Of a DNA stretch of 64,000 bases, positions 4,477-62,497 are shown piece by piece; position 1 is the first letter of the stretch; every line of letters starts with the position of its first letter. The translations under genes were made by a program, and so were the position numbers. The notes beneath the pieces were generated by a model. The model searched no databases and had not been told where the DNA came from. It saw nothing but the letters and a program-made list of their open reading frames with translations. Origin of the DNA: Luidia sarsii (Eukaryota > Echinodermata > Asteroidea > Paxillosida > Luidiidae); contig OX465120.1 of assembly GCA_949987565.1 (NCBI GenBank), positions 7,144,587-7,208,586 on the forward strand. The letters are read 5' to 3'.

Positions 4477-4516
4477 CCCGATAGTAGTATATAAAGAGCA
4501 TTTCGGTCCATGTTGA

Positions 4517-4670
4517 GGTGGCATTGAGGTGGAGGTGGAGGTGGAGGTGGAGGTGGGAGGTGGAGGTGGAGGTGGAGGTGGAGGTGGGAGGTGGAGGTGG
4601 AGGTGGGAGGTGGAGGTGGGAGGTGGGAGGTTGGAGGTGGAGGTGGGATTGAGATTGTGGGAGGTGGGAG
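4517..4670 (+). repeat. GGAGGT minisatellite in left arm of A
   Basis: About 150 bp of 'ggaggtggaggtggg' units. The mirror array (CCACCT) is at 6919-7068. The reading frames through it (polyproline, poly-Gly/Val/Glu) are products of the repeat. The G-rich strand has closely spaced GG and GGG runs that could fold as a quadruplex. Confidence 0.9.
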
Positions 4671-5007
4671 TGGTTTCGTTAAAGACTGCGACAAGGGAAT
4701 CGAAACGGGTGCCTAAAACCAACCGGAACTCACCAGAACATTCCTTATGTGGTCAACAGGCAATATACAGTTTGAGGTATTTTATTGAACACTTTCACGC
4801 TTGTAACAATAACAATAATAAATTAAAGAAATAAATAAAATTAATAAAACATTAGTAAACAACAAAATAATTAGCGAAACGAACGTCGTTTCCATCTACT
4901 AATAAATAAAGTACAAAACAGAAATTGATGAATAAAAATGGAAAGTACGACATTTACTTATTAAGTGATAATTGTTTTCGGAAGTGTTCCGATTATGCAA
5001 AGGTCTT

Positions 5008-5433
5008 TTACAAATCAACATTTAGTCTTTTGATTATATCATCAATCGAGCTCCGTTAAAATGTCGAATACGTTGGTATAAAACGATTGACTGAGGTCGG
5101 CAGGATCAAGTTTTTACTCATTCAGTACTTGGTGAATTATATCATCCATGTTCATTCCTTCGTAAGTAAATGGACCTACGCCAAGACGACTGGTCACCGC
5201 ACCAAATACGAGGACGACTTGGGTCTTATCAACCGACTGCGCGGCTCGCACGAAGTATTCATCTACGTAGTCACTGAGGCAACATATCGGATTCATTCGA
5301 GGAGAAGATGGTTGAATCTCCGTCTCAGAAGACGTGTCAATGGGAATTTGTAATATTGGAAGTTCACCCATTTTCGGAAAGAGAATATAGTACGATCGTA
5401 ACGTTCGACGAAGGGTCCACTTTCAGTACACAT
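5008..5433 (-). pseudogene. Decayed copy of element A cargo ORF
   Basis: Mirror copy of the ORF at 6156-6575, in the left arm and reading outward. A 5-bp insertion near 5387-5391 shifts the frame close to the start, and the codon matching Trp105 is TAA. The rest is nearly identical to the right copy, so it decayed after the arms last matched. Confidence 0.8.
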
Positions 5434-5627
5434 CGGCGTAGAAATGGTGTCCACTCTTGTTCCACCCCTTTATAAAGACCGGTAACTTAATCCCTAAACA
5501 TATTTAGCTTACATTACGTCATTGTAGTATTCAAATTGGTGACGTCATCGGATTGCTCCTACTCGATCCAGATGGTTAGCAATCCCTAAACAATGGTACA
5601 AGACGAGACTTGTCTGAACCTATATTT

Positions 5628-5931
5628 AGCTTACATTACGTCATAAGGATATTAAAACAATAGACTCGATCTGTCGGAACACAGTGCTTTGGTTGTCATT
5701 CCCAAGTGTTTATTATATTTTCATTCACCACCGGTTTTGAACAATAAACAAAACAGATTCATTATAATGAGGAGTGAGTAACTGAGATAAACTTCATGAT
5801 CATACAAATGCTAGACTATTTAACAATTATAACAGTCTGTCTTTGTGCTCACTTTGCTCATTTTGCTCATTCGCCTACTCATTTTGCTCATTCACCTGCT
5901 CATTTTGCTCATTCGCCTTCTCATTTAAATA
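5628..5931. other. Unique core of element A with GCTCATT repeats
   Basis: About 300 bp between the arms. The right end (5845-5925) is a minisatellite of 'gctcattttgctcattc' units. The same repeat, inverted, is in the core of element B (52160-52375), which links the two elements. A TTACGTCA site lies at 5637-5644. Confidence 0.75.
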
Positions 5932-6006
5932 TAGGTTCAGACAAGTCTCGTCTTGTACCATTGTTTAGGGATTGCTAACCATCTGGATCGAGTAGGAGCA
6001 ATCCGA

Positions 6007-6120
6007 TGACGTCACCAATTCGAATACTACAATGACGTAATGTAAGCTAAAATTAATATGGGTCCGGACAAGTCTCGCCTTGTACCATTGTTTAGGGATT
6101 AAGCTACCGGTCTTTATAAA
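6007..6120 (+). promoter_or_regulatory. Candidate outward promoter in element A arm (CRE-like sites and TATA box)
   Basis: A full TGACGTCA palindrome lies at 6007-6014, a TGACGTAA half-variant at 6033-6040 and TATAAA at 6115-6120, 36 bp before the first ATG of the ORF. The tract 'cttgtaccattgtttaggg' occurs at 5953-5971 and again at 6080-6098 as a direct repeat. TGACGTCA is the known CREB/ATF target. The left arm repeats the arrangement in mirror (TGACGTCA at 5540-5547). Promoter activity is inferred. Confidence 0.55.
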
Positions 6121-6155
6121 GGGGTGGAACAAGAGTGGACACCATTTCTACGCCG

Positions 6156-6575
6156 ATGTGTACTGAAAGTGGACCCTTCGTCGAACGTTACGATCGTACT
6201 CTCTTTCCGAAGATGGGTGAACTTCCAATATTACAAATTCCCATTGACACGTCTTCTGAGACGGAGATTCAACCATCTTCTCCTCGAATGAATCCGATAT
6301 GTTGCCTCAGTGACTACGTAGATGAATACTTCGTGCGAGCCGCGCAGTCGGTGGATAAGACCCAAGTCGTCCTCGTATTTGGTGCGGTGACCAGCCGTCT
6401 TGGCGTAGGTCCATTTACTTACGAAGGAATGAACATGGATGATATAATTCACCAAGTACTGAATGAGTGGAAACTTGATCCTGCCGACCTCAGTCAATCG
6501 TTTTATACCAACGTATTCGACATTTTAACGGAGCTCATTGATGATATAATCAAAAGACTAAATATTGATTTGTAA
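6156..6575 (+). CDS. Element A cargo protein, 139 aa, unknown family
   Basis: The first ATG in the open frame is at 6156 and the TAA at 6573-6575. An upstream GTG at 6135 is in frame but is unlikely as a start in an animal. The protein is acidic and without a signal peptide. It has a short hydrophobic strand (residues 71-77, 'VVLVFGA') after a Cys-Cys pair (49-50), and an acidic-amphipathic C-terminal helix (120-136). I do not recognise the family. It sits inside the inverted arm, so the element carries it twice, but only this copy is intact. A TATA box lies 36 bp before the start and AATAAA about 220 bp after the stop, so a short unspliced transcript is possible. Similarity of the two copies suggests, but does not prove, recent function. 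Confidence 0.6.
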   Translation: MCTESGPFVERYDRTLFPKMGELPILQIPIDTSSETEIQPSSPRMNPICCLSDYVDEYFVRAAQSVDKTQVVLVFGAVTSRLGVGPFTYEGMNMDDIIHQVLNEWKLDPADLSQSFYTNVFDILTELIDDIIKRLNIDL

Positions 6576-6793
6576 AAGACCTTTGCACAATCGGAACACT
6601 TCCGAAAACAATTATCACTTAATAAGTAAATGTCGTACTTTCCATTTTTATTCATCAATTTCTGTTTTGTACTTAACGACGACGATGGAAACGACGTTCG
6701 TTTCGCTAGTTATTTTGTTGTTTATTCATGTTTTATTAATTTTATTTATTTCTTTAATTTATTATTGTTATTGTTACAAGCGTGAAAGTGTTC

Positions 6794-6799
6794 AATAAA
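6794..6799 (+). terminator. Outward poly(A) signal in element A right arm
   Basis: AATAAA within 'gttcaataaaatac', downstream of the cargo ORF. It lies in the block conserved with element B. The mirror signal on the - strand is at 4786-4781. Confidence 0.55.
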
Positions 6800-7161
6800 A
6801 TACCTCAAACTGTATATTGCTCGTTGACCACATAAGGAGTTCCGGTTGTTTTTAGGCACCCGTTTTGACTGTTATTTATCCCAACTCCCCTGTCGCAAGT
6901 CATTAACGAAACCACTCCCACCTCCCACAATCTCAATCCCACCTCCACCTCCCACCTCCCACCTCCACCTCCCACCTCCACCTCCCACCTCCCACCTCCA
7001 CCTCCCACCTCCCACCTCCACCTCCACCTCCACCTCCCACCTCCACCTCCACCTCCACCTCCACCTCAATGCCACCTCAACACGGACCGAAATGCTCTTT
7101 ATATACTACTCCCGATCGTCAAACGACCGGAAAGATACAACTTTTGAAAGGTGGAAGTGTG

Positions 7162-17845: not shown

Positions 17846-17849
17846 AACA

Positions 17850-25800: not shown

Positions 25801-28800
25801 AGGCAGTACAGAGCCTGAAAGAAAGTATTTACCCTTGTATTTCCATGGCATACCTGTCAAAATAAAATGTTAGCTATTACAAGGTATTGCATTCTGTGCA
25901 GAATTACCACACTAATCAACACAAATCACTACCAAATCACTGGTAAACAGGACAAGGTTGAAATGATAATTTTGAAGCGTTTGTGGTTTGAGTTTTTAAA
26001 AGCTGAATGTTTTCTTATGACCCAGAACAGTATTGTCACAATGACTACAAGATGGTAGACCGATGAGAGTATCATCTGCATTTTCAGGAATTGGCAAGTA
26101 ATTTCAAAACGTAACACTCAGTATCACTTTATGTCCTTATTCTAATAGACAACCGTATTGCCAGAACTCTTTTACACTACCCATTAAAAGAGTGGTGAAA
26201 TACGTTTTGAAAAATGTTACAAACTTTCCCGGTGCTATTTTCAAAAATTTGGTTTTTTTCCCTGCATGAATGGATCACCATTTCATGAAAATGCCAATGA
26301 TGTGGTATCATAATGACAGCTGAACTTTGCAAGGCAGCTATCCCAACCCTTACTTAGCTTTTACACAGCAGTATGTTTTTTGTGCTATTTTACCCTTGCA
26401 AAGCCAAAGATGTTTGAGGTTTTTTTTATATCCAAATCACTGTTTGCTGACATCATGAGAAATAGGCCTAGCACTAACCATAAAGCCAAACAATCACTGA
26501 TCACCATCATGTTTCAATAAAGATTTTGGCTAAAAAATGCATTCATTTGAAATGCATTAACTAAAGGATACAATCTTGAACCTTGTTGCCACACACGAAA
26601 GGCAAGAAATGAGATACTTGCCTCAGCTGTCTCCTACCATATGTGCAATGGTTTCAAGAGTGCTACATCACAAGGGCAAATTACCACAAACAAATATGTA
26701 GCATAACAAAAAAGCTGCACAAACATCCAATTGTGTGAGGTTTGATTTGCTTTTAGCCATACTGTTCTCTTAGTGATTGATTTCACAGGTATTTATTGTT
26801 CCTGATTATTTAGCAAGTTTTGAAAATGACACTTAGATGTAATTCAAAACCCTCCTGTGTGGTGATCATCAAATCATGTGCACTGAAAAGTGGCCCAGTG
26901 CAGAGTGATTGATCATCTCATCTTCAATCATCTTACCTTGTTGGGCATTCTTTATGGCTCGTATGTAATGTTTGCGTTGCATTTCTCTTGTTTCACTCCG
27001 CCAATCTTCCAGTAACTGCTGATCTCTACAGTAAGTGTGAAATAATTTACACAAAATAAACGATCATAATTTACTATTCAAACAATCCATCATTTCCTAC
27101 ATTTCTCACTATTAAAAAACAAAGTTTTTGTAATATGCACAAATGATCCAAACTGCTCACTGATGTAAAAACCAAAACGTATCTCAAAAATGTAGAATGA
27201 TTTCACTTTTAAAAAAGGGTCTGCAATGATCAAAACATCAGGCTTCATACATTGAAAACAAAAATGTTGTAAATTGCTTACAGACCAGAAAGACTTGAAA
27301 ATAAAAGTCTTAAAAAGTGAAAGGGGTTGAACCATCAGTACTTATTCAAATTCAACCAATACCATTATCAGAGATAAGGTCAGTACCCAATTCACAACCC
27401 ACAAAATTAAAGAAAACAAAATCACTGTAAAAAAAAAAAAACCCATACAGTGACAGTTTGAAATGAAATTTGGTTTGATTTGATAAAGGTATTAATAGGC
27501 GGATATTTTAATCAATGCTATGAATATGATTTCTTGTTATAAATAACACAAGGTGATATCATGTCTCACTTTCTCTTCTGCTCCATCAGTGCTTGTTTCT
27601 GTTGAAGTTCTCTGAGTTTAGCTAAGCGTTTCTCTTCTGCTTGACGGGACTCAATGGGATCAATCAAAGGTGGAGTCTTTATTCGCTTCTTCTTCTTCTT
27701 CTTTCGCCTGAAATAAAACCATAAAATTTACTGGGCCTGATGTTTTTATCCTAGCAGGACCTTTCTCAAAGGCAGAGTGACAAGGACAACACAGATACAT
27801 GTACACGAAGGACAGGGGAAGAGAGTGAATAGGACACGGATGAGAAACAAAGGACAAAGAGTAAAGCTGGTAGGGTGAGATCAAAGGGAAGGGCAAGGAG
27901 TAGGGTAGGGATTAGTGAGAAGAGGGGGAAAGATAAAAGAGAGAAGTGTGAAGGAGTGAACACAAAAGAAGGATTAACAGAAATTAGCTGCATGGTGTTA
28001 GTCATTACCCTCCTGGATGTTGAGACCATGTGGTTGAATAGTCCGAAGACACTTCATCCACATTTTCTCACGGCTTAGACGGACAGCATTACTGCGGTGA
28101 CCAAGGGATTCTATGCCCAGTACACTCATATCTGATATCGAATGATCAGGGAGATTGAAGTGATACCCAACAGGGGTGTCCATTTTACCGGTTTTGATTG
28201 TAGACCTCTGGCCATAGATACGTTTTTTGAGGGTGTTTTAGGTCTCGCCAACATACTGAACATTACAAACTCTACATGAGACGATGTATATGATGTTGGA
28301 GGTAGTGCACGTGATACAGCCATAGGTCGTGTGGGTAGTTCCAGAAGAATGTCCATTGAAAGAGTCTATTTCCTTGACATGTGTCTTGCAAACAAATAAA
28401 ACCAAAATAAAAATAAAACCAAACGAATCTAAGAATGTACTAGATTTCTATGAACAGTATGAAGGGCCCCAAAGTTAAGTGCGTGTCAATGTTTTCTCAG
28501 TGTGAAACATATTTTGTACATACATTATATGTGTCACAGTAATCTTGGATTACAAGCTGTTCCACCCTACAAGCATGCTATAAGCAACATCATTATGACT
28601 CTTCTTCACCAATGTCGTGTTCATTATACTGCTAATGTAGTCAGGTGCTGAAAATTTCATCAAAATTACATTTACAACCATTGGTTGTTTTCATCTGTAT
28701 GAAAGCGGGGGTGTTATCCCTGGAGAAATAAGCCAATTATTGGTTGAATTGCTTCTGACTGGTGCCCCACCCCGGCAAAGACTAGTTTTTGGGTATGCCA

Positions 28801-31800
28801 CCATCTAGGGGCTGGATAGCTCAGGTGGGAAGAGCACTGGTATGCAAAACCAGAGGTCCTGGGTTCAAATCCCGGTCAGGGCGGTCCAGTCAAATCATTC
28901 CAGTCAGTTTTTCATTGATCTGTTTGACTCAAAATGAGATTCAAACATTTAGTCTATTGAATTTAAAAGTGTCTAACTTAATTTTATTTTTTGTTTACCG
29001 GTAATTTATTTTTATTTTTTTTAATAATGTAACGGTTTACAAATAAAAAATGACGATTCATCAATACGGTAATTTACTTGAGGAATTTCAGCAAAAATCG
29101 GTTTTGTATATTGGGAATAAAATGTACACTTATGTACATGTATAATGTTTGTTCAGAGGTGAAATAACACCAATAAAAAAAAATATGCGAAGTGTTAAGT
29201 TCAACAATCATGAGATCATCTGGACATTGGTGAACAATTTGAAAGAGTCATCTACCAAGGTAGTGACCCAGACAGTGACTGTGCAACTTCACGCACATGG
29301 TGAGCACTAGAGAAACAAGCCTTTAGCCAAACCATGACATCATGTCTAAATTGCATAATTACAGAACATAAATGCAGTAGTGGATGCAGAAACTAGGCAA
29401 ATACTGTACATGGACAACATACAGTATTATGTACAGTGTATATGAGACAATAATCGTCTACATTATAAAGAAGACTAATTGTATCAAGTCATTCATGAGT
29501 CAGATATTTCAACACAGTTATGCCCTAATCATTTACCTCTTCTCAATGCAGGGCATACTGAAGGTGAACAAGTGCTTTGGATCATGTGTGGTAAAACTGA
29601 GAACTCGTGCATTAAAGTAAAGGGCTGGACAGTAAAAGTGGACCAACTGCCTCTGAGCACTGACCATAGCATCAGGCTACCTGATAGTGTGGGGTCAGCA
29701 GCTTGGCTGCCCTGCCATGAATAACACACAAACATTTAGCTTCAACTGTAATACTTTATATCAAAGAATATCTAAGCCATTTCCCAAATTCGGGCTCATC
29801 ATAGAGCTATTTGGCCACAATGTTTCTTGTGATGAGCTCTGGATAGCCATCACAGACAAATAAAGTTCGCTAGGCAGCATTGTTATCTCTGAATACAGGT
29901 TTGCTGAGTGCCTCAGTAGATGTACCATGGTAGTGTACCTGCATTGTTTGTATCCAGAGGAGAAAGGATTCTAAGGCCTTTTCACACTATGAAAAATCTC
30001 TGTGTTGAACACGGGTCGGACCCGTGTTGAAATGACTGACCTGTTCACACTACATTTCAACACGGGTCGGACCCGTGTAGAGCGCTCGACCCATGTTGAA
30101 ACCAACCCTGCTCGGGAGGTGGGTTGAGAGCTCTCAACCCGTGTTGAAAATTTCAACACGTGTTGAAAGCCGTAGTGTGAACGTCTCCGGGTTGAGTTCG
30201 ACCCGTGTTGGGAGACGGCCGAGTGCACATGCGTGGCAGCCCCACACTGTAGATATTGTACTGTGCAACGAACAATCATGCCAGATTTTGTTGTTGCATG
30301 CACAGACGTATATTTATACGTCCATGGTTGCATGGGGTATTAAACCCCACATGCAAAGGCAGCGCTGCCTCGAGTTCAGTACATGTACAGGCACAAGAAA
30401 CATGACAACTTCTCTGGCTGTAGGCACATAATTTGCTTGTCTTGAAGCAATATCCCTGTCATTATCGGAATGGAAAAATGTGTCTTTTTACAATCATGTA
30501 TACTTATAAGAAGCTCTCGCAGGGTGAGATCGGCAAAAAAACGGGTCCTAACAAAGTCGTCAGCGATGCACTGTAGTCTGTACTACGATGTCAAACTTCG
30601 CGTGCATGCATGTGGCGGCAGAAAATACGAGAAGTCATTCGATCGATTTTACTAAGGAGTAAGGGAGGTTTAAAAGACCATTATACAAACTATAAAACTA
30701 TTGTACTTATAAATCAACGTTGTAATTTTCTTTCATCAAACAGTGGCAACAAATAAACAATAGCCACTGCGTCGCAGAAAATAAGCGAGGCGCTGGCGGC
30801 TGCCGGATTCGAGAAGTCAGCAATACAGTGCCGTGACGCACCGCAATGCATTATGGGGGTTTTCAGATTGGACCCGTGTTGAAAGTTCAATGCCGTGTGT
30901 AGTGTGAAACGATCACGCATTACACGGGTCGAAACATTACACGGGTTGAGAAAATGCGGCGAGAGTGACCCGTGTTGAATTCAACACGGGTCGGACCAAT
31001 GTCGGACCCGTGTAAGTTTCAACACGTGTTGAACGTTCATAGTGTGAAAAGGCCTCTAGTTTTGCAGTGGTACACACAATTCCTACCTGCAGTTCATGGA
31101 TCATTCACACTTGTGATGCTGCTTTTTGTATTGCTTGTTTGTAGTGCTTCATACACAGACTGTTCATGAATAAGCTATGTGTGTGCATCACTGTGTTCAA
31201 TCACACTCTACTGTGCTTCATTCATTCACACATGACAAGTCCATTGCTCACTGGTTAAGGCAATCACACCTACACTGTGTATGTTTTGATTTTAAAAACA
31301 AAATGTATGCTGTTTGAAGCTTAAAATGCTGGCATTAGTAGGAGACCTATTTGTGTATTACCTTTGCATTGCCTGAGCACAGTTAATGCCAACTTAAAAG
31401 AGAAATGCAGCTTACATGATGTTTTATTCACTGATGGGGTTTAAGATTCATCCATATTGTGGCATCAAGTCATGTCATCAGGTGTATCACATCACCCATT
31501 GGATTTGGACTGTAATCTTTTGGGGGCTCAATTCAAAATCTTAGATTTTAGCAGATTTGAATTTTTGGTCCTAATGTTAGCAATACTTGGGTTTTCTAAA
31601 TCTCAATGCTGCACATATGCAAATACAGGTAGTGCAGTACACATGCAAGTGTGTACAGTGTACAGTCAGTGTGCATAGTGTATGGTATACAAATGACAAG
31701 GTTGCTGTGCAATTGGGTTTTCATTTGCAGAATGTGTACACTGTTGGTGACACATATGTGCATATAATGTTTATATGTACACATGTACAGTTGTAGATAG

Positions 31801-45200: not shown

Positions 45201-46992
45201 CCTAAAGTTTCCGTGGGTCTTCCTCTTTACCCCTCTTTTGTATTGTCCACTGGTATGGGAGTTCTACTCAGTATTAGTGTTTTGTTCAGTGAGTCTCTTT
45301 GAAATAGTAAGGAAACCGCCAGGTGTTAGCAAACCCCTGCGCATGGCAAAGTAAGTTAATGAATGCGTGGCCCTCTTTTAATGCAAATTTATTCAAAATA
45401 GTTACGTAAAAGAATGGAATGAGAGAGATTGAAGAAAAGAAATAGTGAGGGGAAGTGTTGTGTGGAGAGAGAGTATGGGAAGATCATGAATTGATGTACA
45501 TGAAAGAGGTCCAAGAAGTACTAGCTCCGATGTTTGAAAACATGTTGGCCTCTGACAGTAATTGAAAGACGGATTTGCCACCCAGCAAAAACAAAATTGA
45601 GGTGTTTGAGGCATCAGTCCCCAAAATCTTGCCCTAGAAATCAATAGCTATAGGACGTCAGATCGGGCCAGGAGAGAGCAGACCTCAAAAAGAAACCCCT
45701 ATAGGAGAAGCTCGTAGAAGTTATTTTCTTTCCTTTTAACACTTCATTCAAATTGCATTGGTCAGTTAAATCTACGTGATACAGCAAGTGAACAAAATTT
45801 AGATGTTTGTGAATTTGTCTTGGAAGCAAAACCATAATTATAATGAAATCTACGACACACATTTTTGAAGGTCGAAAGATGAACGGTTATACAATTTGAT
45901 GTACAGTATACAAAGGTATTTCTCCTGGAATTAAAGGATCATGATAGTATACAGAAACTTAATTTAAAGATGGCTGAAAACTAAAAGGTTGTAAAATCTG
46001 ATATGGTTAATCTTCTTAGTGTTGTTAGGGTTATATTTATGTTTTTAAAATATTTTAGATGGCCTTTGGCTGCCAGTGCCAAGAAACCTCCCTGGTGAGA
46101 CGCTCGTCAGCAAGCAGCCACCCTAACTGCTCCAATCCTCATAGAAGGACCACTTGCTGGATGTAGAGGGGACTGCAAGCTAGACGGCCCAGATCTAACA
46201 CCATTAAGGGAGGAAGGCTTAACCATTTAAATTAAAGAATAGTTATAAAGTTGTAAAAAAAACACCAATTGGAAACATAAGAAAATTAACATAAATTAAT
46301 TGTGTCTTTAGAAGAGAAACCTGTCTGCAATTAATTTTCAAAGCTAAAGAGAAACCAATATTGTATTTGTTGTTGTAAATTAATTGTCACGTATGAAAGG
46401 ATTGGAAGAAGAAGCGAAAGCGTGACCTATCTAAAATCAATATTGTCCAAAGAGAAACCAATATATCCTGTTTTTTATGGTGTAAATAGATTGTAAATAA
46501 AATAAAAGTAAATCTTAAAATTTAGTGGGCCTGACGTTTTGATCCTAGCAGGACCTTTCTCAAAGGCAGAGTGACAAGGACAACACAGATACATGTACAC
46601 GTAGGAAGGGGGAAGAGAGTGAATAGGACACGGATGAAAATCAAAGGACAAAGAGTAAAGCTGTTAGGGTGAGATCAAAGGGAAGGGCAAGGAGTAGGGT
46701 AGGGATTAGTGAGAAGAGGGGTAAAGATCAAAGAGAGAAGTGTGAAGGAATGAACACAAAAGAGGATCACAAAAGAGGAACACAAAAATAAAAGTAAACT
46801 AGTTGAAGTGTTATTTTCCCATAATTTGGTGTAACGTCGCCTTAATTCTTATACAGGGGTCTTATCGGTCCTGCATCTGAACGTAGAATAGAAGGCATCA
46901 CCAAGTCTAAGTTATCTGTCATCAACCACCTCCAGACCAACAAAGTCATGTCCTTCTTCCGGAGACCCACTCTAAAGAACTCTCCCACCTGA
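39233..46992 (+). CDS. Unidentified small protein gene, four exons, PIP-box-like C terminus
   Basis: Exons: 39233-39314, 45290-45350, 46059-46094, 46857-46992. Donors are GTGAGT, GTAAGT and GTGAGA; acceptors 'ttgttcag', 'tattttag' and 'cttatacag'. Phases 1, 2 and 2 all match, giving about 104 aa. The start 'aaagATGGCTGCC' also forms a YY1-like AAGATGGC motif, common at animal promoters. Exon 1 codes 'MAATFCIVGQERHLLDHL', exon 2 'VRKPPGVSKPLRMAK', and the last exon ends 'NKVMSFFRRPTLKNSPT'. The spacing of V and FF ('xxVMSFF') resembles a PCNA-binding PIP box without its usual Gln. I do not recognise the family. Intron 1 is 6 kb and full of mobile elements, and further exons could be hidden there. 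Confidence 0.6.
39921..40763. mobile_element. PIF/Harbinger-like non-autonomous element H2
   Basis: The 837-bp element begins 'aggccttttcaatctag' (39924) and ends 'gtgtgaaaaggctt' (40760). TAA lies on both sides. The interior has repeated 'caacccgggttga' palindromes, like the 'acacgggt' palindromes in H1. The insertion point is the centre of a palindrome: 'actaactcag' before and 'ctgagttagt' after. Confidence 0.82.
41212..41569. mobile_element. MITE M2, copy 1
   Basis: The ends are 'ggcactagcaaagatctta' and, reversed, 'ggcactggtgcccaaagatc', with 'gcgcgcaagat'-type subterminal repeats. The interior is shared in inverted orientation with 42830-43190 ('ttactaaaatggc', 'cagtgcgtacttca'). Confidence 0.7.
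41673..41782. repeat. Perfect long hairpin
   Basis: Arms 41673-41714 and 41741-41782 are inverted copies of 42 bp with one mismatch, around a 26-bp loop. It may be a small MITE. The flanks share 'acaagta' and 'acaagtta'. Confidence 0.85.
41913..41997. mobile_element. Small inverted-repeat element with T run
   Basis: The ends 'agtccgaattacttggaccc' and 'gggtccaagttactcggact' enclose a run of about 20 T. The motif 'gtccaagttac' also occurs at 39557 and 41789, suggesting a dispersed family. Confidence 0.75.
42420..42545 (+). mobile_element. Penelope-like tail fragment
   Basis: Reads 'aggatcgatacgtcag', then 'ttttgcattttggtaa' and 'cagtaagcagtttgcaaaat'. It follows a short TACTAG repeat (42386-42420). 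Confidence 0.6.
42830..43190. mobile_element. MITE M2, copy 2
   Basis: Inverted relative to 41212-41569. The ends carry 'gcaaagatct', 'gcgcgcaagat' and the reversed equivalents 'atcttgcgcgc' and 'agatcttta'. Confidence 0.65.
43230..44200. mobile_element. TTAA-flanked element K2
   Basis: TTAA at 43230-43233 and 44197-44200. The ends 'aggtcaactgcaatgca' and, reversed, 'agatcaactgaagtgca' match at 14 of 17. The 963-bp interior has a 98-aa + frame (43308-43604) that ends 'VVEDCSSGINMYFRP'. I do not recognise it and it may be spurious. The TTAA ends suggest a Kolobok- or piggyBac-type element unrelated to K1. Confidence 0.75.
44330..44525 (+). mobile_element. Penelope-like 3' UTR and tail
   Basis: Pyrimidine-rich UTR (44330-44460), then 'cctttgagaaag', 'gtcctgctaggat' and 'aacgtcaggcc'. 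The usual tail is interrupted by 'tac'. Confidence 0.65.
46505..46795 (-). mobile_element. Penelope-like 3' UTR and tail
   Basis: Reversed tail at 46515-46570 and reversed UTR to 46770, in the last intron of the unidentified gene, about 60 bp before its final exon. Confidence 0.75.
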
Positions 46993-50693: not shown

Positions 50694-50869
50694 TGGGAGT
50701 CCCAGACTTGTTTGTGTATGCTACAACAGGATGCCATAGTGGACACGCGCTGTAAAGCTTGTTCCAAGGCCCCTCGTGTTTAGTTTGTTACAGCGTGATA
50801 ACCACTTTATTTCCTCTGAACACATTGCCACCGCTATGTACGATGCCACAATCGTGTGTATAGTTGGTT

Positions 50870-51588
50870 AGTAGTATGTTGTGACCGATGTGCACCCCTT
50901 TTGGTGGTGCAAAAATGTGCAGGTGGTGCAGGTGGTGCAGGTGGTGCAGGTGGTGCGGGTGGTGCGGGTGATGCGGGTGGTGCGGATGTGCGGGTGGTGC
51001 GGTTGGTGCGGGTGGTGCGGATGTGCGGGTGGTGATGTACGTGGTGCGGTAATGGTGGACGCATAGGCCTACGGCTATTTTGTATTGCATTGTTGCCTTT
51101 TTAAAATTATTATTATTATTAATTTTTTTTAATTTTTTTTTTTGTTTTTTTGTTTTTTTAATTTTTTTTCCCCCAGCGTTTTCTAACAAACAAACAAACA
51201 AACAAACAAACAAACCACACCCAAACAGACAAAGGAACAAAAAAGTCAAACAACAGCTACGAATTGCGACAAGGGAGTTGGGTTAAATAACGGTCGAAAC
51301 GGGTGCCTAAAACCAACCGGAACTCACCAGAACATTCCTTATGTGGTCAACGGGCGATATACGGTTTGAATGATTTTATTGAACTCTTTCATACTTCACA
51401 AATCTTTACAAATCAAGGTAGGTGGTTGTTCTGCCGTCATAAGCCACTTTCTTTCTTTCTTTTTGGATATAAGTATGAAAATGCAGTTTTCAACATTACG
51501 TTACATACGTTTGTATGGTTCAGTTTAACTAATAAACAAACAAAAAAGCTACCAGTGGCAGTATCTATCTAATGGTAGTCGTTATCAA
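50870..51588. repeat. Element B left terminal inverted repeat
   Basis: The arm includes the ATG of the cargo ORF (51572), so its first five codons are repeated in mirror in the other arm. The - strand AATAAA at 51380-51375 would end a leftward transcript. Confidence 0.9.
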
Positions 51589-52132
51589 ACCGGGATTTAA
51601 AAGGCGTAGATGTCAGGATTCAGAAACAGACAGCAGCGGAACTGAATCTACAATTGATGGTGACGGGACTGAATCTAAGGATGATGGTGACGATTTGGAG
51701 GAGAGTGATGACGAATCAGAGGAAGAAACTGACGATGACTTGTCGGAAGAAGATGGGTCCAGCTCTGAATTGGAAGATAATATCGCTTACCAAGACTGGT
51801 TGAAAGAGGCCAAAGAGGCAACCAAAGATATGTGGAATGAGAAACACGAGAAGTACATCGACAATGGTATGGACGAAGATGAAGCCGAAGACAAAGCCAA
51901 TAGGAAAACCTGCTGGGCAGTCAAGAGAATCTTCTTTGACAACTACAAGGATTTCCTGTCAAGTTACTTGCATCTTGAAGAAAATGAAACCCACCAAGTT
52001 ATTCTCGCAGATCTCAAAGAAAAACTAGATAAAGGCATGGAAGTTGACAAGGCCCTGGACAGGGTAATGGTTAAACACTATGCCGAATTTCTCGGCTTGT
52101 TCCAACATGATGAAAGCGGAAGAAAAAGTTAG
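51572..52132 (+). CDS. Element B cargo protein, 186 aa, acidic N terminus
   Basis: ATG at 51572, stop TAG at 52130-52132. A short basic patch (residues 9-13, FKRRR) is followed by a long Asp/Glu/Ser tract (17-69). A helical domain of about 115 residues then has 'GMDEDEAEDKA' (99-109), 'FFDNYKDFLSSYL' (121-133) and 'GMEVDKALDRV' (155-165). The paired 'GM-x-x-x-x-A' motifs suggest an internal repeat. I have a vague memory of similar acidic-helical proteins in invertebrate genomes but cannot name a family. The intact frame, with acidic tract and helices in one module, argues for real coding. A nuclear, protein-binding role would fit the basic patch and acidic tract but is inference. Poly(A) lies at 53234-53239 in the right arm. 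Confidence 0.65.
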   Translation: MVVVIKPGFKRRRCQDSETDSSGTESTIDGDGTESKDDGDDLEESDDESEEETDDDLSEEDGSSSELEDNIAYQDWLKEAKEATKDMWNEKHEKYIDNGMDEDEAEDKANRKTCWAVKRIFFDNYKDFLSSYLHLEENETHQVILADLKEKLDKGMEVDKALDRVMVKHYAEFLGLFQHDESGRKS

Positions 52133-52154
52133 AGATGGTAAGGATTAGAGAATC

Positions 52155-52375
52155 CTATTTCTTTATGAGAGCAAAATGAGCAGGTCGATGAGCAAAATGA
52201 GCAGGAAATGAGCAAGATGAGCAAAATGAGCAGGAAATGAGCAGGAAATGAGCAAAATGAGTACGTGAATGAGCAAAATGAGCAAGTGAATGAGCAAAAT
52301 GAGCAGGTGGACGAGTACAATGAGCAGGTCGATGAGCAACATGAGCAGGTGGATGAGTACAATGAGCAGGTCCCG
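52155..52375 (-). repeat. GCTCATT minisatellite in element B core
   Basis: About 220 bp of 'gagcaaaatgagcagg' units on +, equal to 'cctgctcattttgctc' on -. It is the same unit as in element A at 5845-5925. The open frames it creates are repeat products. Confidence 0.85.
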
Positions 52376-52554
52376 ATTCCTGTTTGATGTTTTTAGATGG
52401 ATGCACAGATGACGATGAGTACGTTGCCGACTGCAAGCAGTCAAGTCTCTTGAAGACTTCCACGACCGCGCTCAAATACGTCAATCGGACAATATACCTT
52501 CATTAGAATTACCGACACTGTTCGTGGCCGGCATTGAACCGACATCAATAACAT

Positions 52555-52875
52555 TCAGCCTTCTAGATTCCCTCTTTGTTCTGTCCGATAGACACTCACA
52601 GATCCCTCTTTGTCCTGCCCGAGAGAGATTTGCGGGCCCCGCATTACCCCTCGTCGTTCTGTCCAATAGAGGCGTGTAGGTCCCTGATTATCCCCCTCTT
52701 TGTTTGGTTCGATAGAGACGTGCAGGTCGCTCATTACCCCCTCATCGTTCTTTCCAATAGAGACGCGCAGGTCCCTGATTAAGCCCTCTTTGTTTTGTTC
52801 GATCGAGACTAATGTCCCCTTGACTCGGACTTGTAGTAACAACTCACCTAGCACCGATTCAACGTGCCCTGTCAC
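52555..52875 (-). other. Imperfect tandem repeat of about 59 bp with a - strand open frame
   Basis: About four units of 'ccctctttgttctgtcc' and 'gatagagacgtgcaggtc' (+ strand). On - a 106-codon frame reads repeated 'DLRVSIGKNDEG'-like motifs. It points toward the poly(A) signal in the left arm. It could be a second, convergent cargo gene, but no start context or known domain supports this. Confidence 0.4.
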
Positions 52876-53029
52876 CCTCGCAGACGATCATTACGCGTTC
52901 CATCTTCGGACTGAACACAACTGCACCGGCTTCACTTTTTGCTTTGTCATCAAGTTAGTATCAATACACATTGATTTGTTGTTTTGTTTTTGTTTTTTAC
53001 TTAGTAGTCTAATTTAAATGTACATTTGA

Positions 53030-53748
53030 TAACGACTACCATTAGATAGATACTGCCACTGGTAGCTTTTTTGTTTGTTTATTAGTTAAACTGAACCATA
53101 CAAACGTATGTAACGTAATGTTGAAAACTGCATTTTCATACTTATATCCAAAAAGAAAGAAAGAAAGTGGCTTATGACGGCAGAACAACCACCTACCTTG
53201 ATTTGTAAAGATTTGTGAAGTATGAAAGAGTTCAATAAAATCATTCAAACCGTATATCGCCCGTTGACCACATAAGGAATGTTCTGGTGAGTTCCGGTTG
53301 GTTTTAGGCACCCGTTTCGACCGTTATTTAACCCAACTCCCTTGTCGCAATTCGTAGCTGTTGTTTGACTTTTTTGTTCCTTTGTCTGTTTGGGTGTGGT
53401 TTGTTTGTTTGTTTGTTTGTTTGTTTGTTTGTTAGAAAACGCTGGGGGGAAAAAAATTTAAAAAACAAAAAAACAAAAAAAAAAATTAAAAAAAATTAAT
53501 AATAATAATAATTTTAAAAAGGCAACAATGCAATACAAAATAGCCGTAGGCCTATGCGTCCACCATTACCGCACCACGTACATCACCACCCGCACATCCG
53601 CACCACCCGCACCAACCGCACCACCCGCACATCCGCACCACCCGCATCACCCGCACCACCCGCACCACCTGCACCACCTGCACCACCTGCACCACCTGCA
53701 CATTTTTGCACCACCAAAAGGGGTGCACATCGGTCACAACATACTACT
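53030..53748. repeat. Element B right terminal inverted repeat
   Basis: Mirror of 50870-51588 with no difference that I can see. Contains the outward AATAAA at 53234-53239. Confidence 0.9.
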
Positions 53749-53754
53749 TTGGTT

Positions 53755-54456: not shown

Positions 54457-55680
54457 TGTAGGCCCTGATATAGGCCCTGATAGAGGTCCTGGTATAGGCC
54501 CTGATATAGGCCCTGATATAGGCCCTGATATAGGCCCTGATATAGGCCCTGATGTAGGCCCTGATATAGGCCCTGATATAGGCCCTGATATAGGTCCTGA
54601 TATAGGCCCTGATATAGGCCCTGATATAGGCCCTGATATAGGCCCTGATATAGGTCCTGATATAGGCCCTGATATAGGTCCTGATATAGGCCCTGATATA
54701 GGCCCTGATATAGGCCCTGATACAGGCCCTGATATAGGCCCTGATATAGGTCCTGATATAGGTCCTGATATAGGCCCTGATATAGGCCCTGATACAGGCC
54801 CTGATATAGGCCCTGGTATAGGTCCTGATATAGGCCCTGATATAGGCCCTGATATAGGCCCTGATACAGGCCCTGATACAGGCCCTGATACAGGCCCTGA
54901 TACAGGCCCTGATATAGGCCCTGATATAGGCCCTGATATAGGCCCTGATATAGGCCCTGATATAGGCCCTGATACAGGGCCAGATATAGGCCCTGATATA
55001 GGCCCTGGTATAGGTCCTGATATAGGCCCTGATATAGGCCCTGATATAGGCCCTGATACAGGCCCTGATACAGGCCCTGATTCAGGCCCTGATGCAGGCC
55101 CTGATACAGGCCCTGATATAGGCCCTGATACAGGGCCTGATATAGGCCCTGATATAGGCCCTGGTATAGGTCCTGATATAGGCCCTGATATAGGCCCTGA
55201 TATAGGCCCTGATACAGGCCCTGATACAGGCCCTGTTACAGGCCCTGATATAGGCCCTGATACAGGCCCTGATATAGGCCCTGATATAGGCCCTGATATA
55301 GGCCCTGATATAGGCCCTGATACAGGGCCTGGTATAGGCCCTGATATAGGCCCTGATATAGGCCCTGATATAGGCCCTGATATAGGCCCTGATATAGGCC
55401 CTGATATAGGCCCTGATATAGGCCCTGATATAGGTCCTGATACAGGGCCTGATATAGGCCCTGATATAGGCCCTGCAGTCGATTTCACCAAACTCATCGT
55501 AACTTACGATCAATCGCAAGACGATGAGCAATGCACAGAAACCATACGGTGTATTACAACTTCCGATTGGTTATTCATCGTAAGGTTACGACGCATCGTA
55601 AGGCTCTGTGAAATCCAGCCCTGATATAGGCCCTGATATATAGGTCCTGATATAGGTCCTGATATAGGCCCTGATATGAC
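54457..55680. repeat. 12-bp minisatellite (GATATAGGCCCT)
   Basis: About 85 units to 55475, then MITE M1, then a few more units to 55676. Common variants are 'gatacaggccct' and 'gatataggtcct'. The unit is a multiple of three, so one frame reads Gly-Pro-Asp-Ile and the - strand reads Ser-Gly-Pro-Ile over 300 codons or more. These are repeat products. Confidence 0.95.
55476..55618. mobile_element. MITE M1, copy inside the minisatellite
   Basis: 143 bp between two CCCTG pentamers. It matches 14933-15077 along its length. The repeat unit itself contains CCCTG, so the duplication could be target choice or chance. Confidence 0.85.
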
Positions 55681-56754: not shown

Positions 56755-58438
56755 TGCCAAGTCGCAAGTCCGACTGTGCGCTGCTCCTGCAGTATGAGGA
56801 CGTTACTCTACCTGAAAAGATTTTTAGTCAGCTTCGGGAGAGGGGGTTGTGACGCGCGACCATTTGGCCGCGCTCCAACCTCTTCCCCCGAAGAAGTTTG
56901 ACGTTGTGTTCAAGTCGCCAGAACTCCTCCGGCGATTTGGCCCCAAGCTTTGAGATATTCATGGGTGTACATACAATTACACCGGTGGCGTCTCCATGGT
57001 CACTATTTTGTATGTTGACCTTGGGGTAGATGACAAGATTGTCCGTAGGCGGTTGTCGGAGTACGTGGAGGTGATCGTTGGTAGGTATTGTACCTATCAG
57101 GGTGAGCCGACCGTCTTTAACGGCACCCGCCAGTACCGTATGCGGATTAAATCGAACATTCCTTCGGTCCTCCGTATCGGGAGTAGGAACGCCTGGGTAT
57201 CTTACCCTGGTCAAAAGCGGACCTGCGCCTGGTGCGGGGCTGAGGGGCACGTGGCCAAGGATTGCTCCTTGGTCACGTGTTTCAAATGTCTTCAGGTAGG
57301 GCATTCCATCAGGGATTGCCCCAACGTTTCCAAGTGCACGTCCTGCGGGGAGACGGGGCACAACTTTCGGTTGTGCCCCAACTCCTTCGCCAACAGGGCG
57401 TCCCCCTCCAAGGCTTGGGCCTCAACCAGCGTCCCTGACGATGACGAGGCCCCTGCACCCCCGCCTGCGGAGGAGAACATCGAGTCACCGTCAGTCTCTA
57501 AGTCTTCTGTCCCTTCTGTTCCTGTTTCATCTGTTTCTCCTTCTACTTCTTCCACTCCGCAGTCCCCCAAGCCTTCGGCTTCATCGCCTCCTTCCCCGCC
57601 TCAGTCTTCTCCTGCCCCGTCCGGGGGGACGCCTGCGGACCCCCTGCAGACACCCGTGCCCCCTACTCCCCTCCCGATTAAGAGTTGCAGTCGGTGTGGC
57701 GAGGCCTCAGGGCCTTACCCCGCTGACTCCTCTTGTCGGGAGTGTGGGGCGCGCCTCGGCGGGGATTTCTCCGTCGTCGAGTGTGTCTCCTGCAGGGGCA
57801 CCAACGGCCCGGCTCAGCTCGTCTGTGCCACCGAGGCGTGTGTCGCTTCGGTCTCGGGGGCCGGTTCCGGGGTGGCTGGTCGGCGAAGGCGGCGCTCTAA
57901 GCGCCGTCAGCGTTCGCCGGACACTTCCCCGGAGGCGGGCACCAAGGTGGCGAGGGCCGGAGGGGGGCGGGATGGCCCGTCCTCTGACGAGTCCTCGAGC
58001 CATGAAATGGAGGCCCAGGCTGGCCCTGGCCCTACGGGCGCGTCTGAGGCTGCGACCCCGATGATCGACTCTAACGAGTCGGTCAAAGGGGAAGCGGCCG
58101 AGGGCTCGCCCCGTGGGGTTGGGGACTCTCAGGAGGAGCCGAGGGACATACAGGCGGAGGCCAGGAGGTTTGTGGACGCGGTGCCTCTCCCCGGGGGTGG
58201 TGGCCCCACCATCGCCTGCCCGGCGAAGGGCTGTGGCCGAGAGTTCGCCATCTGGGTTCACCTCAAGCTGCACATCGGCTCAGACCACGAGGAGCAGGTA
58301 CCTGTTCAGGTCGCCTGCCCCTTCTGCTCTGCAAAGCCAGAGGCCTGGCTGTGGAGGAAACATCTCGGCAGCCACCACCCCCTTCAAGTCCTGAAGAAAC
58401 CTGCCAGTTTCTTCACTGACTCCTTTTCTGTCCTTTAA
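56755..58438 (+). pseudogene. Tx1/L1-type LINE ORF1 with zinc knuckles
   Basis: The first ATG at 56755 starts a frame that ends after 33 codons; the rest continues in other frames and then is open from 56996 to 58438. Three CCHC knuckles lie at about 57229-57385 ('CAWCGAEGHVAKDC', 'CFKCLQVGHSIRDC', 'CTSCGETGHNFRLC'). A Pro/Ser-rich linker follows, then paired Cys motifs ('CSRCGEASGPYP', 'CRECGA'), and a C-terminal C2H2-like part ('CPAKGCGREF', 'CPFCSAKP'). ORF1 proteins bind the element RNA. At least one frameshift near 56850 and a stop near 56952 disable it. Confidence 0.82.
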
Positions 58439-58499
58439 TCCCCCCTTCCATTTTTTTGGCTCCATCATGGTCTCTTTCCTCTCCTTTACCTTCAATATG

Positions 58500-60436
58500 A
58501 TTTCTTTTCTTTCACTCAATGTCAACGGCATGCATGACCCTGCGAAGCGTCGCGCTGTCTTTGACATCTGTTTTTCCTTTGATATTTCTTTCCTCCAGGA
58601 GTGCCACATCTCGACGGAGAAGGATGTTCGGTCCTGGAAGGCTGAGTGGAAGGGTCACCTTCATGCCAGCTTAGGCAGCCCTGCATCCTGTGGTACCATC
58701 CTCCTCACCTCTTCCCGTTCTAACCTTTCCCTTTCAGATCTTTCTTCCGACAGCAGTGGTCGTGTCGTCTCCGGAGTCCTCGAGACTTCAGGAACGAAGC
58801 TGAGGCTGATCAACATCTACGCCCCGAACGACCCTGCAGGCAAAACCTCTTTTTTTCTCTGACCTGTCTTCTTTTTTCTCAGGAAACCTGCCTGCCTCGC
58901 TGGGTGGTGACTTCAACTGCGTGTTGGACAGCCAGCAAGACAGAGCGGGTCATTCTTCTGTGTCATGCGACGGCGGCCAACAAGACCTGGCCCAGTTGAC
59001 GCCCTGTCGGACGGCTGGAGGCAGCTCCATCCCGGAGAGCGTTCCTTCACTTGGAGGAACGCCTCAAACTCCATCCAGAGCCACCTCGACAGGTTCTATC
59101 TGTCTTCTGCTTGCCTCCCTGTGGCTTGCGACCATTTTCCTGTGTATCTTTCTGACCATGATGGAATCTCTCTCTCCCTCCGTTTTTCCTCTAGCCCCTC
59201 CCGCGGACCCGGCTATTGGAAGTGCAACACCACGAGCTTGGAGGACGACTCCCTTCAGCGAGATTTCAGGTCCAAATATCTTGGCTGGCGGTCTCTCAAG
59301 AGGGGGTATGACTCCATCTTGGAGTGGTGGGATGACGTCAAGGATCGTAGCAAGTCCTTGATCGTCTCCCACTCCTGCCGCCTCGCGAGAGACCGCCGTA
59401 AAGTCAAAAAATGTCTTCTTGCCTCCTTTTCGCAGGTCACCGCCAGACTGGACGGGGGTTCGAGGGACCCCGATCTGTTGGCTGAGAGGGAGCGGATCAA
59501 GGCCGCGCTCTCGGACCTCGACGCTGTTCGGGCTGAGGGGGCCAGAGTGCGGTCCCGCATCCAACAGCTGATGGACGGGGAAAGTCCCACCGGGCACTTC
59601 TATCGCCTGGAGTTCGGCAATAGGAAGGCATCCACCATCCCTGCGGTCAGGCTGGCTGACGGTATGGTGACTTCCTCTCCGGAGGACATCACAGACACGT
59701 ACCGTCAGTTATATTCTTCTTTGTATTCGGCGGAACCGGTGTCCGAAGGTTCACGGTCCTTTTTTCTGGACGGGCTGACGGACACGGTTCCTGAGGTTGA
59801 AGCGGACGAGTTGGAAGCCCCGCTGCGTCTGTGCGAGCTGACATCAGCTCTGCACAGTATGCGCAGGGGCAAGACGCCGGGGGGTGACGGGCTCCCCAAG
59901 GAGTTTTACTCCACCTTCTGGGACCTCCTGGGCCCAGACCTCCTTGAGGTCTTTGCGGCCGCTTTTGAGTTGCGGGCCCTTCCGGCTTCTCAGAGGTGTG
60001 GCATCGTCACCCTCCTGAATAAGTCGGGGGACCCGCTCCTCCCCAAGAACAAGCGGCCCATCTCTCTCCTGATCGTGGACTATAAGATCTTGTCCAAAGT
60101 TCTCTGTACTCGTCTGGGCGCCGTCCTGCCCTTCCTTGTGAGTCCCTTTCAGACGTGTGGAGTTGTGGGTCGCTCGATCCACGACAACGCTTGTCTGCTG
60201 AGGGACTTGGCTTCTTATGTTCAAGACCGTTCCCTTAACTCTCTCTTCATTTCTTTGGACCAGGAGAAAGTGTTCGACCGTGTCGACTGGTCCTTCCTCC
60301 TGGCAACTTTCCGGCGGTTGGGATTCGGGCCGGGCTTTGTCCGTTGGCTGGGCATCCTCTACGGGAATATCTCGTCGAGGGTCCTGGTCAATGGGCATCT
60401 GTCTGAGTCCTTCTCCCTCCGCCGAGGTGTCCGCCA
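58500..60436 (+). pseudogene. Tx1/L1-type LINE ORF2: endonuclease and truncated reverse transcriptase
   Basis: The APE-type endonuclease begins 'FLSLNVNGM' and shows 'ISFLQECHIS', 'LINIYAPND', 'GGDFNCVLD' (58900) and 'SDHDGISL' (about 59150). A stop at 58860-58862 and frameshifts before 58965 break it. From 58965 the frame is open through the linker and RT blocks 'MRRGKTPGGDGLPKEFY', 'NKRPISLL', 'SIHDNACLL' and 'FISLDQEKVFDRVDWSFL' (motif A). It stops just after 'SLRRGVR', before the catalytic YADD box, where the sequence turns into gypsy pol. Confidence 0.85.
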
Positions 60437-61480
60437 TCAAGTCTTCATGGCAAAACTATATTTTCGAAGATTGATTTAGTAAGAGCAAATCTCAAGATAC
60501 CTGTGGAACCCAGTGACATTCCAAAGACAGCATCTACTACCCCTTTTGGTTTGTTTGAATTTGTCAGAATGCCATTTGGTTTAAGAAATGCAGCACAGAC
60601 TTTCCAAAGATGTATAGATCAAGTTCTGCATGGCCTTCGATTTGCATATGCCTACATAGACGACGTACTTATTGCTATAGTTCATCACAGGAGGAGCACT
60701 ATCAGCACCTTACGATATTATTCGAAAGGCTGAATGAGTATGGAGTGATTATTAACCCTAGCAAGTGTGTTTTTGGAGTGCAATACCTTGATTTCTTAGG
60801 ACACAAGGTAGATTCAACAGGAATTAGTCCTCTTTCAGACAAAACACAAGCTATCCAAGATTTTCCTCCCCCAAATTCTTTGAGGAAGGTACGAGAATTC
60901 TTGGGTTTGGTTAACTTTTATCGCAGATTTATACCTCACGCTGCTGATATTTTACGACCATTCACCGATCTTCTTGGAGGTACAGTTTACAACAAGGCCA
61001 TTCAACTCTCTGACAGGGAACTCCAAGCTTTTAATGAAGCTAAGTCAGCTTTAACTCAAATAGCGATGCTCACTCATTTAGACATCTCTGCTGCACTTTG
61101 TATTGCCGTAGATGCATCTGATGTTGCTGTAGGTGGTGTACTCCAGCAGTTGGTGGAGGACCATTGGCAACAATTGCTTTCTTTTCAAAGCGTCTTAAGA
61201 AAGCTGAGACTAAATATAGTACATTTAGTAGAGATTTATTAGCAGCTTATCTCTGTATCCGACACTTTGCTCATATATTGGAAGGCAGATCTTTCCATAT
61301 TTTTACGGACCACAAACCACTGACATACTCTTTTGCAGCTGGCCCAAATCGCTATATACTCACCACGAGAAATAAGGCATTTGGATTATATTTCCCAGTT
61401 CACAACTGACATTCGCCATGTAAAAGGCAAGGATAATGTCGTTGCTGATGCCCTATCTCGTCCACTTGTCGGCATTATAG
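60437..61480 (+). pseudogene. Gypsy pol: reverse transcriptase (5' cut) and RNase H
   Basis: Starts abruptly at '[13 protein letters not shown]', RT motif A. It continues '[19 protein letters not shown]', the catalytic '[10 protein letters not shown]' (about 60640), 'REFLGLVNFYRRFIP' and the RNase H start 'IAVDASDVAVGGVLQQ' (61100). After a frameshift near 61160, 'FFSKRLKKAETKYSTFSRDL' and 'FHIFTDHKPLTY' follow; another shift comes near 61345, then 'VKGKDNVVADALSR'. Fingers of RT, protease and gag are missing. Defective. Confidence 0.88.
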
Positions 61481-61567
61481 AGACTAGCAGAGCAGAGCAG
61501 AGCTGAAGACATTGCTTCACTGCAAAAAGATGATGAAGAATTACGCAAATTACGGAATTCATCATCC

Positions 61568-62497
61568 TTGCGCTTACAAGAAGTACCATTATCTACTTCT
61601 CATGGTATGATTACTTGTGATACTTCATCTGGTACGGCAAGGCCATATGTACCCATGAAACTACGACAAGCAGTTTTCCATTCTTTGCACTCATTGTCTC
61701 ATCCAGGCATTCGTGCAACGCAAATGCTCGTTACACAGAGATTTGTCTGGCCAAGCATTAATCGTGATGTCCGAAGATGGACGCGAGGTTGTTTAAAGTG
61801 CCAACAAGCTAAGGTACATCGCCATAATATGGCACCAGTTGGTACCTTTGCCTTACCTAAAGCACGCTTTAACCATGTGCATATAGACATAGTAGGACCT
61901 CTACCTCCATCTAATGATTATAGTTACATTCTTACCATCATAGACCGATTTACCAGGTGGCCAGAAGCTATTCCTATCCATAATAACATAACGGCCGAGA
62001 CTGTTGCAAAAGCCTTTGTAGAGCGTTGGGTAGCAACATTTGGGGTGCCAAGTATTATTACAACTGATAGAGGTACCCAGTTTGAGTCAGCGCAGTTCAA
62101 ACAACTTAACCATATTTTCGGAGCAAAGCGTATCCGTACTACAGCTTATCACCCGATGGCTAACGGAATGGTGGAACGCTTTCACCGACAGCTTAAGTGT
62201 GCCATTAAAGCGCAACCACATCCTACTCACTGGACAGAGGCATTGCCGATCATTCTTTTAAGCATCCGTACTACATATAAAAATGATCTTAAATGTTCAG
62301 TAGCTGAAATGGTATTTGGTAGTACTCTTTCCCTTCCATGTGAACTTGTAACAGCTGATAATGAAGAGATTATCCCACTTGATTCATCCAATTATGTTCA
62401 TCGTTTGAAGCAACAAATGGCCGCATTACGGCCAAGAGCACCTCGGCTATCCACAAAAAAGGCCCAAAAAAGGCACTTTAGTGCTAAGCCGAAGTGA
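61568..62497 (+). pseudogene. Gypsy integrase
   Basis: A 309-codon open stretch. The zinc-binding part has the His pair in 'FHSLHSLSHPG' and 'CLKCQQAK'. The catalytic core shows the first Asp in 'HVHIDIVGPL', the second in 'ITTDRGTQFES' and the Glu in 'NGMVERFHRQL', the DDE triad of retroviral-type integrases. It is well conserved but continues a broken polyprotein. The end is out of frame with the C-terminal piece and about 30 residues seem to be lost. Confidence 0.9.

What the first reader, a model, noticed from the sequence alone, without database searches (positions are those of the whole stretch)
50864..53754. Element B shares ends, arm block and core repeat with A but carries a different ORF
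B has the same 8-bp termini, a 6-bp duplication (TTGGTT), the same 130-bp arm block, and the same GCTCATT repeat in its core. Its arm minisatellite and its protein are unrelated to A's. That points to a modular family in which a fixed mobility chassis carries exchangeable genes. Arms that look identical imply a recent insertion.
Basis: partly seen in the sequence, partly recalled or inferred. Interest (0 to 1): 0.92.

Follow-up and report, generated by a model that had tools for sequence, protein, structure and literature searches.

The report
Cut-down virus-like transposon with mirror ends
Element B is a 2.9-kb stretch of DNA with long mirror-image ends, flanked by a 6-base duplication and carrying a shortened gene; it is likely a cut-down relative of the virus-like Maverick/Polinton transposons that would need a full-length relative to copy and move it.

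Summary
B (50870-53748, TTGGTT duplications) begins AGTAGTAT, ends ATACTACT, and its 720/724-bp arms align with 2 mismatches and one 4-bp gap. A (4483-7110, CCCGAT duplications) shares the ends, arm block and core repeat. (AGT)2//(ACT)2 ends plus 6-bp duplications are the published signature of vertebrate Mavericks (PMC8097293, passages), but A and B are under 3 kb with no room for Maverick core genes: likely non-autonomous elements with Maverick-type ends, not members proper.

'Fixed chassis, exchangeable genes' needs correcting. Both ORFs are 5'-truncated chimeras. B's joins arm sequence to the C-terminal part of a zinc-finger/acidic protein (28 relatives, 16 with a C2H2 motif). A's joins the start of a WW+PC4 gene to the C-terminal half of a zinc-knuckle gene. 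B's core also holds the start of that zinc-knuckle gene family. Simplest account (inferred): two different internal-deletion leftovers of related larger parents.

Genome-wide copies, a parent and presence/absence polymorphism were not tested: the genome search did not complete on 25 of 25 tries.

The parts
50864..50869 (.). left target-site duplication of B, TTGGTT
53749..53754 (.). right target-site duplication of B, TTGGTT
50870..51589 (+). B left arm (720 bp); starts AGTAGT, ends ...GTTATCAAA
53025..53748 (-). B right arm (724 bp), inverted copy of the left; ends ACTACT
50915..51034 (+). G-rich end minisatellite of B, 9-bp unit (mirror copy 53584-53703)
51262..51395 (-). arm block, left copy; outward-facing AATAAA at 51375-51380, a predicted polyadenylation signal
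53219..53352 (+). arm block, right copy; outward-facing AATAAA at 53234-53239
51572..52132 (+). B ORF, 186 aa: 6 codons from the arm end, then the C-terminal part (acidic stretch and helical domain) of a C2H2/acidic protein family without its zinc finger
52169..52371 (+). 21-bp tandem repeat (GAGCAAAATGAGCAGGTGAAT), shared with A
52387..52473 (+). start of the zinc-knuckle gene family whose C-terminal half is A's ORF; only about 20-31 residues recognisable, open frame ends at 52503
52624..52809 (.). 45-bp tandem repeat in B's core, not found elsewhere in the window
4477..4482 (.). left target-site duplication of A, CCCGAT (right copy 7111-7116)
4483..5628 (+). A left arm; carries a copy of A's ORF on the minus strand with an in-frame stop at 5114-5116
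5926..7110 (-). A right arm, inverted copy of the left
6213..6575 (+). A ORF, 120 aa plus stop: 6213-6287 is the start of a WW+PC4 protein, 6288 onward the C-terminal half of a zinc-knuckle protein; TATAAA at 6115
4700..4797 (-). arm block in A left arm (92.9% to B); right copy 6783-6901
5846..5926 (-). core repeat of A, homologous to B 52169-52371

Best explanation
B is a 2.9-kb inserted element with near-identical long inverted arms and a 6-bp duplication, and it is likely a non-autonomous derivative of a larger Maverick/Polinton-type element that would be copied and inserted by enzymes supplied by a full-length relative. The proposed cycle (inferred, by analogy with Mavericks and adenoviruses): the doubled AGT at each end would let a protein-primed polymerase start and jump back; the two arms would pair in the displaced single strand and keep each other identical; a retrovirus-type integrase would insert the linear copy, leaving the 6-bp duplication. 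The cores of A and B are read as remnants of a larger gene set left by different internal deletions, which accidentally joined new start codons to the C-terminal parts of two parental genes. In both, an AATAAA in the arm block faces outward and is predicted to end transcripts that leave the core.
For: Ends, duplications and arm lengths match published vertebrate Mavericks: (AGT)2//(ACT)2 the most common end motif, 6-bp duplications, arms of 46-1,447 bp, end repeats proposed to serve jumping-back (PMC8097293, passages). Each ORF is a chimera: B's joins the arm end (exactly at 51589) to the C-terminal part of a family of which 16 of 28 relatives keep an N-terminal C2H2 motif; A's joins 25 residues that are the start of WW+PC4 proteins (24 of 25 identical to P0039; WW in 6 of 6 and PC4 in 5 of 6 leader hits, the query among them) to the C-terminal half shared with 8 other proteins. 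B's core has the start of that second gene, beginning at its Met: profile score 26.9 bits, E 4.7e-7 among 1,971 window frames, next best 9.4, best of 20 random first-order Markov controls 12.1, reversed window 7.0; tblastn hits from 3 of the 4 relatives with that N-terminus at E 1e-5 to 0.009. Arm block AATAAA is kept in all four arms.
Against: No parent was seen: no polymerase, integrase or capsid gene was found linked to these ends, and six scans of viral contigs, two of genome contigs and two of phages gave nothing. None of the three gene families was shown to be viral; no protein named a Polinton source. The Maverick end rule quoted is for vertebrates, and this host is unidentified. P0030's MVVVI start suggests the arm/core joint may be a fixed boundary, which fits a modular chassis about as well as a chance deletion. 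The match in B to the second gene is short (20-31 residues), and P0034's N-terminus did not hit by tblastn. In A's two ORF copies, 3 changed codons are silent, none missense and 1 nonsense: too few to decide, but not what pure decay would favour.
Confidence: 0.55

Rival explanations
1. A and B belong to some other long-arm (foldback-like) cut-and-paste transposon family that happens to make 6-bp duplications, and it captured pieces of host genes, as Pack-type transposons do.
For: Gene pieces fused in frame to element sequence are typical of gene capture (recalled). No Maverick core gene was found in either element; C2H2, WW and PC4 domains are all common in host proteins.
Against: (AGT)2//(ACT)2 plus 6-bp duplications is a specific published match. 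B carries pieces of two gene families 255 bp apart on one strand (52132 to 52387), and the second family recurs in A, which independent capture would not favour. Ginger elements, also integrase-like, have 4- or 5-bp duplications and, for Ginger1, TGTNR ends (PMC2836005, passages), not met here.
Confidence: 0.22
2. One reading: a fixed mobility chassis that carries exchangeable, useful genes kept by selection.
For: Two copies share ends, arm block and core repeat with different ORFs. P0030 may be a third with the same arm end. B keeps 34 of 35 columns conserved in its relatives. A's two ORF copies differ by 3 silent and 1 nonsense codon, no missense.
Against: Both ORFs lost their N-terminal module, and the two cores share pieces of one gene set. 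B's arms are so little diverged that an unselected ORF would still be intact; the one conserved column B lacks lies in the lost finger. dN/dS was not computable: the relatives are held as proteins only.
Confidence: 0.15
3. The shared ends and repeats are chance or assembly artefact.
For: Low-complexity arms and inverted repeats can mislead assembly (recalled).
Against: Two independent insertions with different perfect duplications and the same ends; arm block E about 1e-37.
Confidence: 0.02

Closest known systems
Maverick/Polinton elements (vertebrate, PMC8097293)
   Same: (AGT)2//(ACT)2 ends, 6-bp duplications, arms of several hundred bp (passages)
   Different: intact ones are 12.7-24.6 kb with eight core genes (seven in Xenopus tropicalis); A and B are 2.6 and 2.9 kb with no room for them
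Non-autonomous Polinton, Repbase name Polinton-1N1_DR (zebrafish)
   Same: by its name, a non-autonomous Polinton; the name was seen in one passage of PMC9341505
   Different: its sequence was not seen, so whether it has symmetric long arms or a chimeric ORF is unknown
Defective and symmetric adenovirus genomes (recalled; one search found no open paper on them)
   Same: small linear DNAs with both ends alike and most of the middle lost, carried by a helper
   Different: those are virus particles' genomes; A and B are chromosomal insertions with duplications
Foldback/Galileo and Ginger transposons
   Same: long arms with internal repeats (Galileo, abstract); integrase-type enzyme (Ginger)
   Different: Ginger duplications are 4-5 bp; Galileo belongs to the P superfamily (abstract), whose duplications are 7-8 bp (recalled)

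Membership tests
Maverick/Polinton | end motif (AGT)2//(ACT)2 or (AG)3//(CT)3 | tested here: met
   against PMC8097293
Maverick/Polinton | 6-bp target-site duplication | tested here: met
   TTGGTT and CCCGAT, both perfect
Maverick/Polinton | terminal inverted repeats of 46-1,447 bp | tested here: met
   720/724 bp and about 1,150/1,185 bp
Maverick/Polinton | protein-primed polymerase, integrase, ATPase and capsid genes | tested here: not met
   longest stop-to-stop frame inside B 198 aa, inside A 151 aa; the two ORF proteins have no Pfam match above cut-off
Maverick/Polinton | size 12.7-24.6 kb when intact | tested here: not met
   2,879 and 2,628 bp
Non-autonomous derivative of a Maverick/Polinton | a full-length partner in the same genome with the same ends | not tested
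   The genome search unanswered on 25 of 25 tries
Ginger | 4-bp (or 5-bp, TDD) duplications; TGTNR ends in Ginger1 | tested here: not met
   6 bp and AGTAGT against PMC2836005
Pack-type gene-capturing transposon | captured pieces come from host genes elsewhere in the genome | not tested
   needs the host genome

The most novel reading that the evidence does not exclude
A and B are defective-interfering-style satellites of an animal virus-like transposon: both kept the C-terminal domain of a parental regulator while losing its N-terminal zinc-binding module, so the shortened proteins would act as decoys that hold down the parent while the element rides on its enzymes.
Probability: 0.08. Interest if true: 0.85.

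Novelty: new variant of a known kind. Interest (0 to 1): 0.5.

Why it matters
Small elements with Maverick-type ends are rarely described: among ten literature searches, one passage named a non-autonomous Polinton, and no listed paper held 'defective interfering' together with two other Polinton terms. If the parent is found, these copies give a record of deletion and end-copying in an animal protein-primed element, and the arm pairs serve as a clock (B about ten times younger than A by arm divergence). In-frame fusions with new start codons also make whether such leftovers do anything directly testable.

Tried and rejected
Rejected: that the arm block is a structured RNA. No Rfam match in A or B (one match in the window, a tRNA at 28810-28883) and folding no better than shuffles (z 0.09, 0.59, -0.79, -0.05).

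Rejected: naming the B domain by fold or profile. The model of P0001 has mean pLDDT 65 with a helical region 71-174; Foldseek gave 0 of 42 PDB and 0 of 106 viral matches at E<=0.001 (best viral 0.04, an astrovirus capsid fragment with TM-scores of 0.23-0.27). The profile search of PDB listed 60 of 177 matches: those shown were C2H2 fingers, plus ornithine aminotransferase entries at E about 0.003 over a short stretch, taken as chance. PHROGs gave a weak phage virion-protein match (E 0.0098), not used. NCBIfam gave nothing credible. The zinc-knuckle family model was too poor to search (pLDDT 40) and had no PDB relative. The bacterial promoter/terminator scan of B was at chance. A profile of that family from 4 of its members was used. 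P0038 and P0039 were left out of alignment A3, and P0043 out of A5.

Only 2 of the 4 finger-bearing relatives put to Pfam passed its C2H2 cut-off; the count of 16 of 28 is by a C2H2 spacing pattern.

Full report
What is there. B is an insertion of 2,879 bp (50870-53748) between two TTGGTT copies. Its arms are 720 and 724 bp and align with 718 matches, 2 mismatches and one 4-bp gap. The arms stop at the same base on both sides...GTTATCAAA at 51589 and its complement at 53025. A is an insertion of 2,628 bp (4483-7110) between two CCCGAT copies, with arms 4483-5628 and 5926-7110. In one search A's arms gave 1,097 matches, 33 mismatches and 88 gap columns, about ten times B's substitution rate (2.9% against 0.28%).

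How it compares with chance. All four ends begin AGTAGTAT. Of the AGTAGT/ACTACT pairings in range in the window, only these two passed a filter for duplication and inverted ends. The arm block hits only the four arms at E<1e-3.

What kind of element. The Maverick paper, of which I saw passages only, gives (AGT)2//(ACT)2 as the most common end motif in vertebrates, 6-bp duplications, arms of 46-1,447 bp, and the proposal that the end repeat serves jumping-back in protein-primed copying (PMC8097293). A and B meet all of these sequence criteria. They fail the gene and size criteria: B's longest stop-to-stop frame is 198 aa and A's is 151 aa. So I file them as elements with Maverick-type ends, likely non-autonomous, not as Mavericks. 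A study of polinton-like viruses in cryptophytes also takes arms of 97% identity or more, with 6-bp duplications, as a sign of recent integration (PMC12220804, passages).

The ORFs. B's ORF (51572-52132, 186 aa) has no Pfam match above cut-off but 28 relatives at E<=1 among 119 candidates. By a C2H2 spacing pattern, 16 of 28 have an N-terminal finger and B has none. B matches relative P0003 from PGFKRRR onward at 94.6% over 184 residues counted from the joint, and the residues before that come from the arm. B keeps 34 of 35 columns that are at least 90% conserved among its relatives; the one missing is a finger histidine. A's ORF (6213-6575) begins with 25 residues that are the start of WW+PC4 proteins: a search with the first 40 residues of P0039 gave 6 of 6 proteins with WW and 5 of 6 with PC4, the query among them, and A matches P0039 at 24 of those 25 residues. 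A's upstream frame also matches the extended start of P0043 (29 of 61 identical, a two-sequence comparison). The rest of A's ORF is the C-terminal part of a family of 8 proteins, 5 of which carry a CxxC...HxC knuckle that A lacks. The copy in A's left arm has an in-frame stop.

The link between A and B. The start of the knuckle family lies in B's core at 52387, just after the shared repeat. A profile of four relatives scores 26.9 bits there (E 4.7e-7 among 1,971 frames); the next window frame scores 9.4, the best of 20 first-order Markov random sequences 12.1, and the reversed window 7.0. By tblastn, three of the four N-termini hit there at E 1e-5, 0.004 and 0.009; P0034's did not at 0.01. So B holds the end of one gene, the repeat and the start of a second gene, while A holds the start of a third joined to the end of the second. 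Two different deletions in related parents explain this more simply than two captures. This is inference: no parent was seen.

A third copy. P0030, from an 18.9-kb contig I could not reach, begins MVVVI as B's ORF does, then differs until the conserved domain. By residue frequencies the chance over 28 relatives is about 3e-5.

How it may work (inferred). Copying by a protein-primed polymerase from the doubled AGT; pairing of the arms in the displaced strand, which would keep them alike; insertion by a retrovirus-type integrase with a 6-bp duplication; all enzymes from a helper. The arm block carries an outward AATAAA in all four arms and is predicted to end transcripts. A has a TATAAA 98 bp before its ATG; B has none. 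The inward G-rich minisatellites are unexplained.

Limits. The host is not identified. The genome search gave no answer on 25 of 25 tries, so copy number, parent, dN/dS and polymorphism are open. Six scans of viral contigs, two of genome contigs and two of phages found no relative (64, 91; 22, 103). Ten literature searches covered open-licence papers only; they turned up one passage naming a non-autonomous Polinton.

Noticed in passing
7177-11212: a 4-kb minisatellite of a 60-bp unit starts about 60 bp outside A's right duplication
   Followed up: no
54459-55475: a 12-bp minisatellite, 85 copies, open in several frames (GPDI repeats), about 700 bp right of B
   Followed up: no
580-1095: ORF with a GIY-YIG domain, perhaps Penelope-like (recalled), with dispersed similar stretches at 2750-2978, 17848-18320, 27716-28394 and 46503-46767
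   Followed up: partly
56954-62497: a CCHC frame and a reverse-transcriptase frame, then a second reverse transcriptase/RNase H and an integrase frame; looks like a LINE beside a gypsy-type element
   Followed up: partly
50917-51034, 4526-4670 and mirror copies: both elements have unrelated G-rich tandem repeats just inside the ends, each with 4-5 G-quadruplex-like motifs by pattern in the left arm; possible role at the ends unknown
   Followed up: partly
relatives P0005, P0024, P0026 and P0030: some relatives of B's protein look chimeric too: P0005 and P0030 have unrelated starts, and P0026 joins the start of one subfamily to the end of P0024
   Followed up: no
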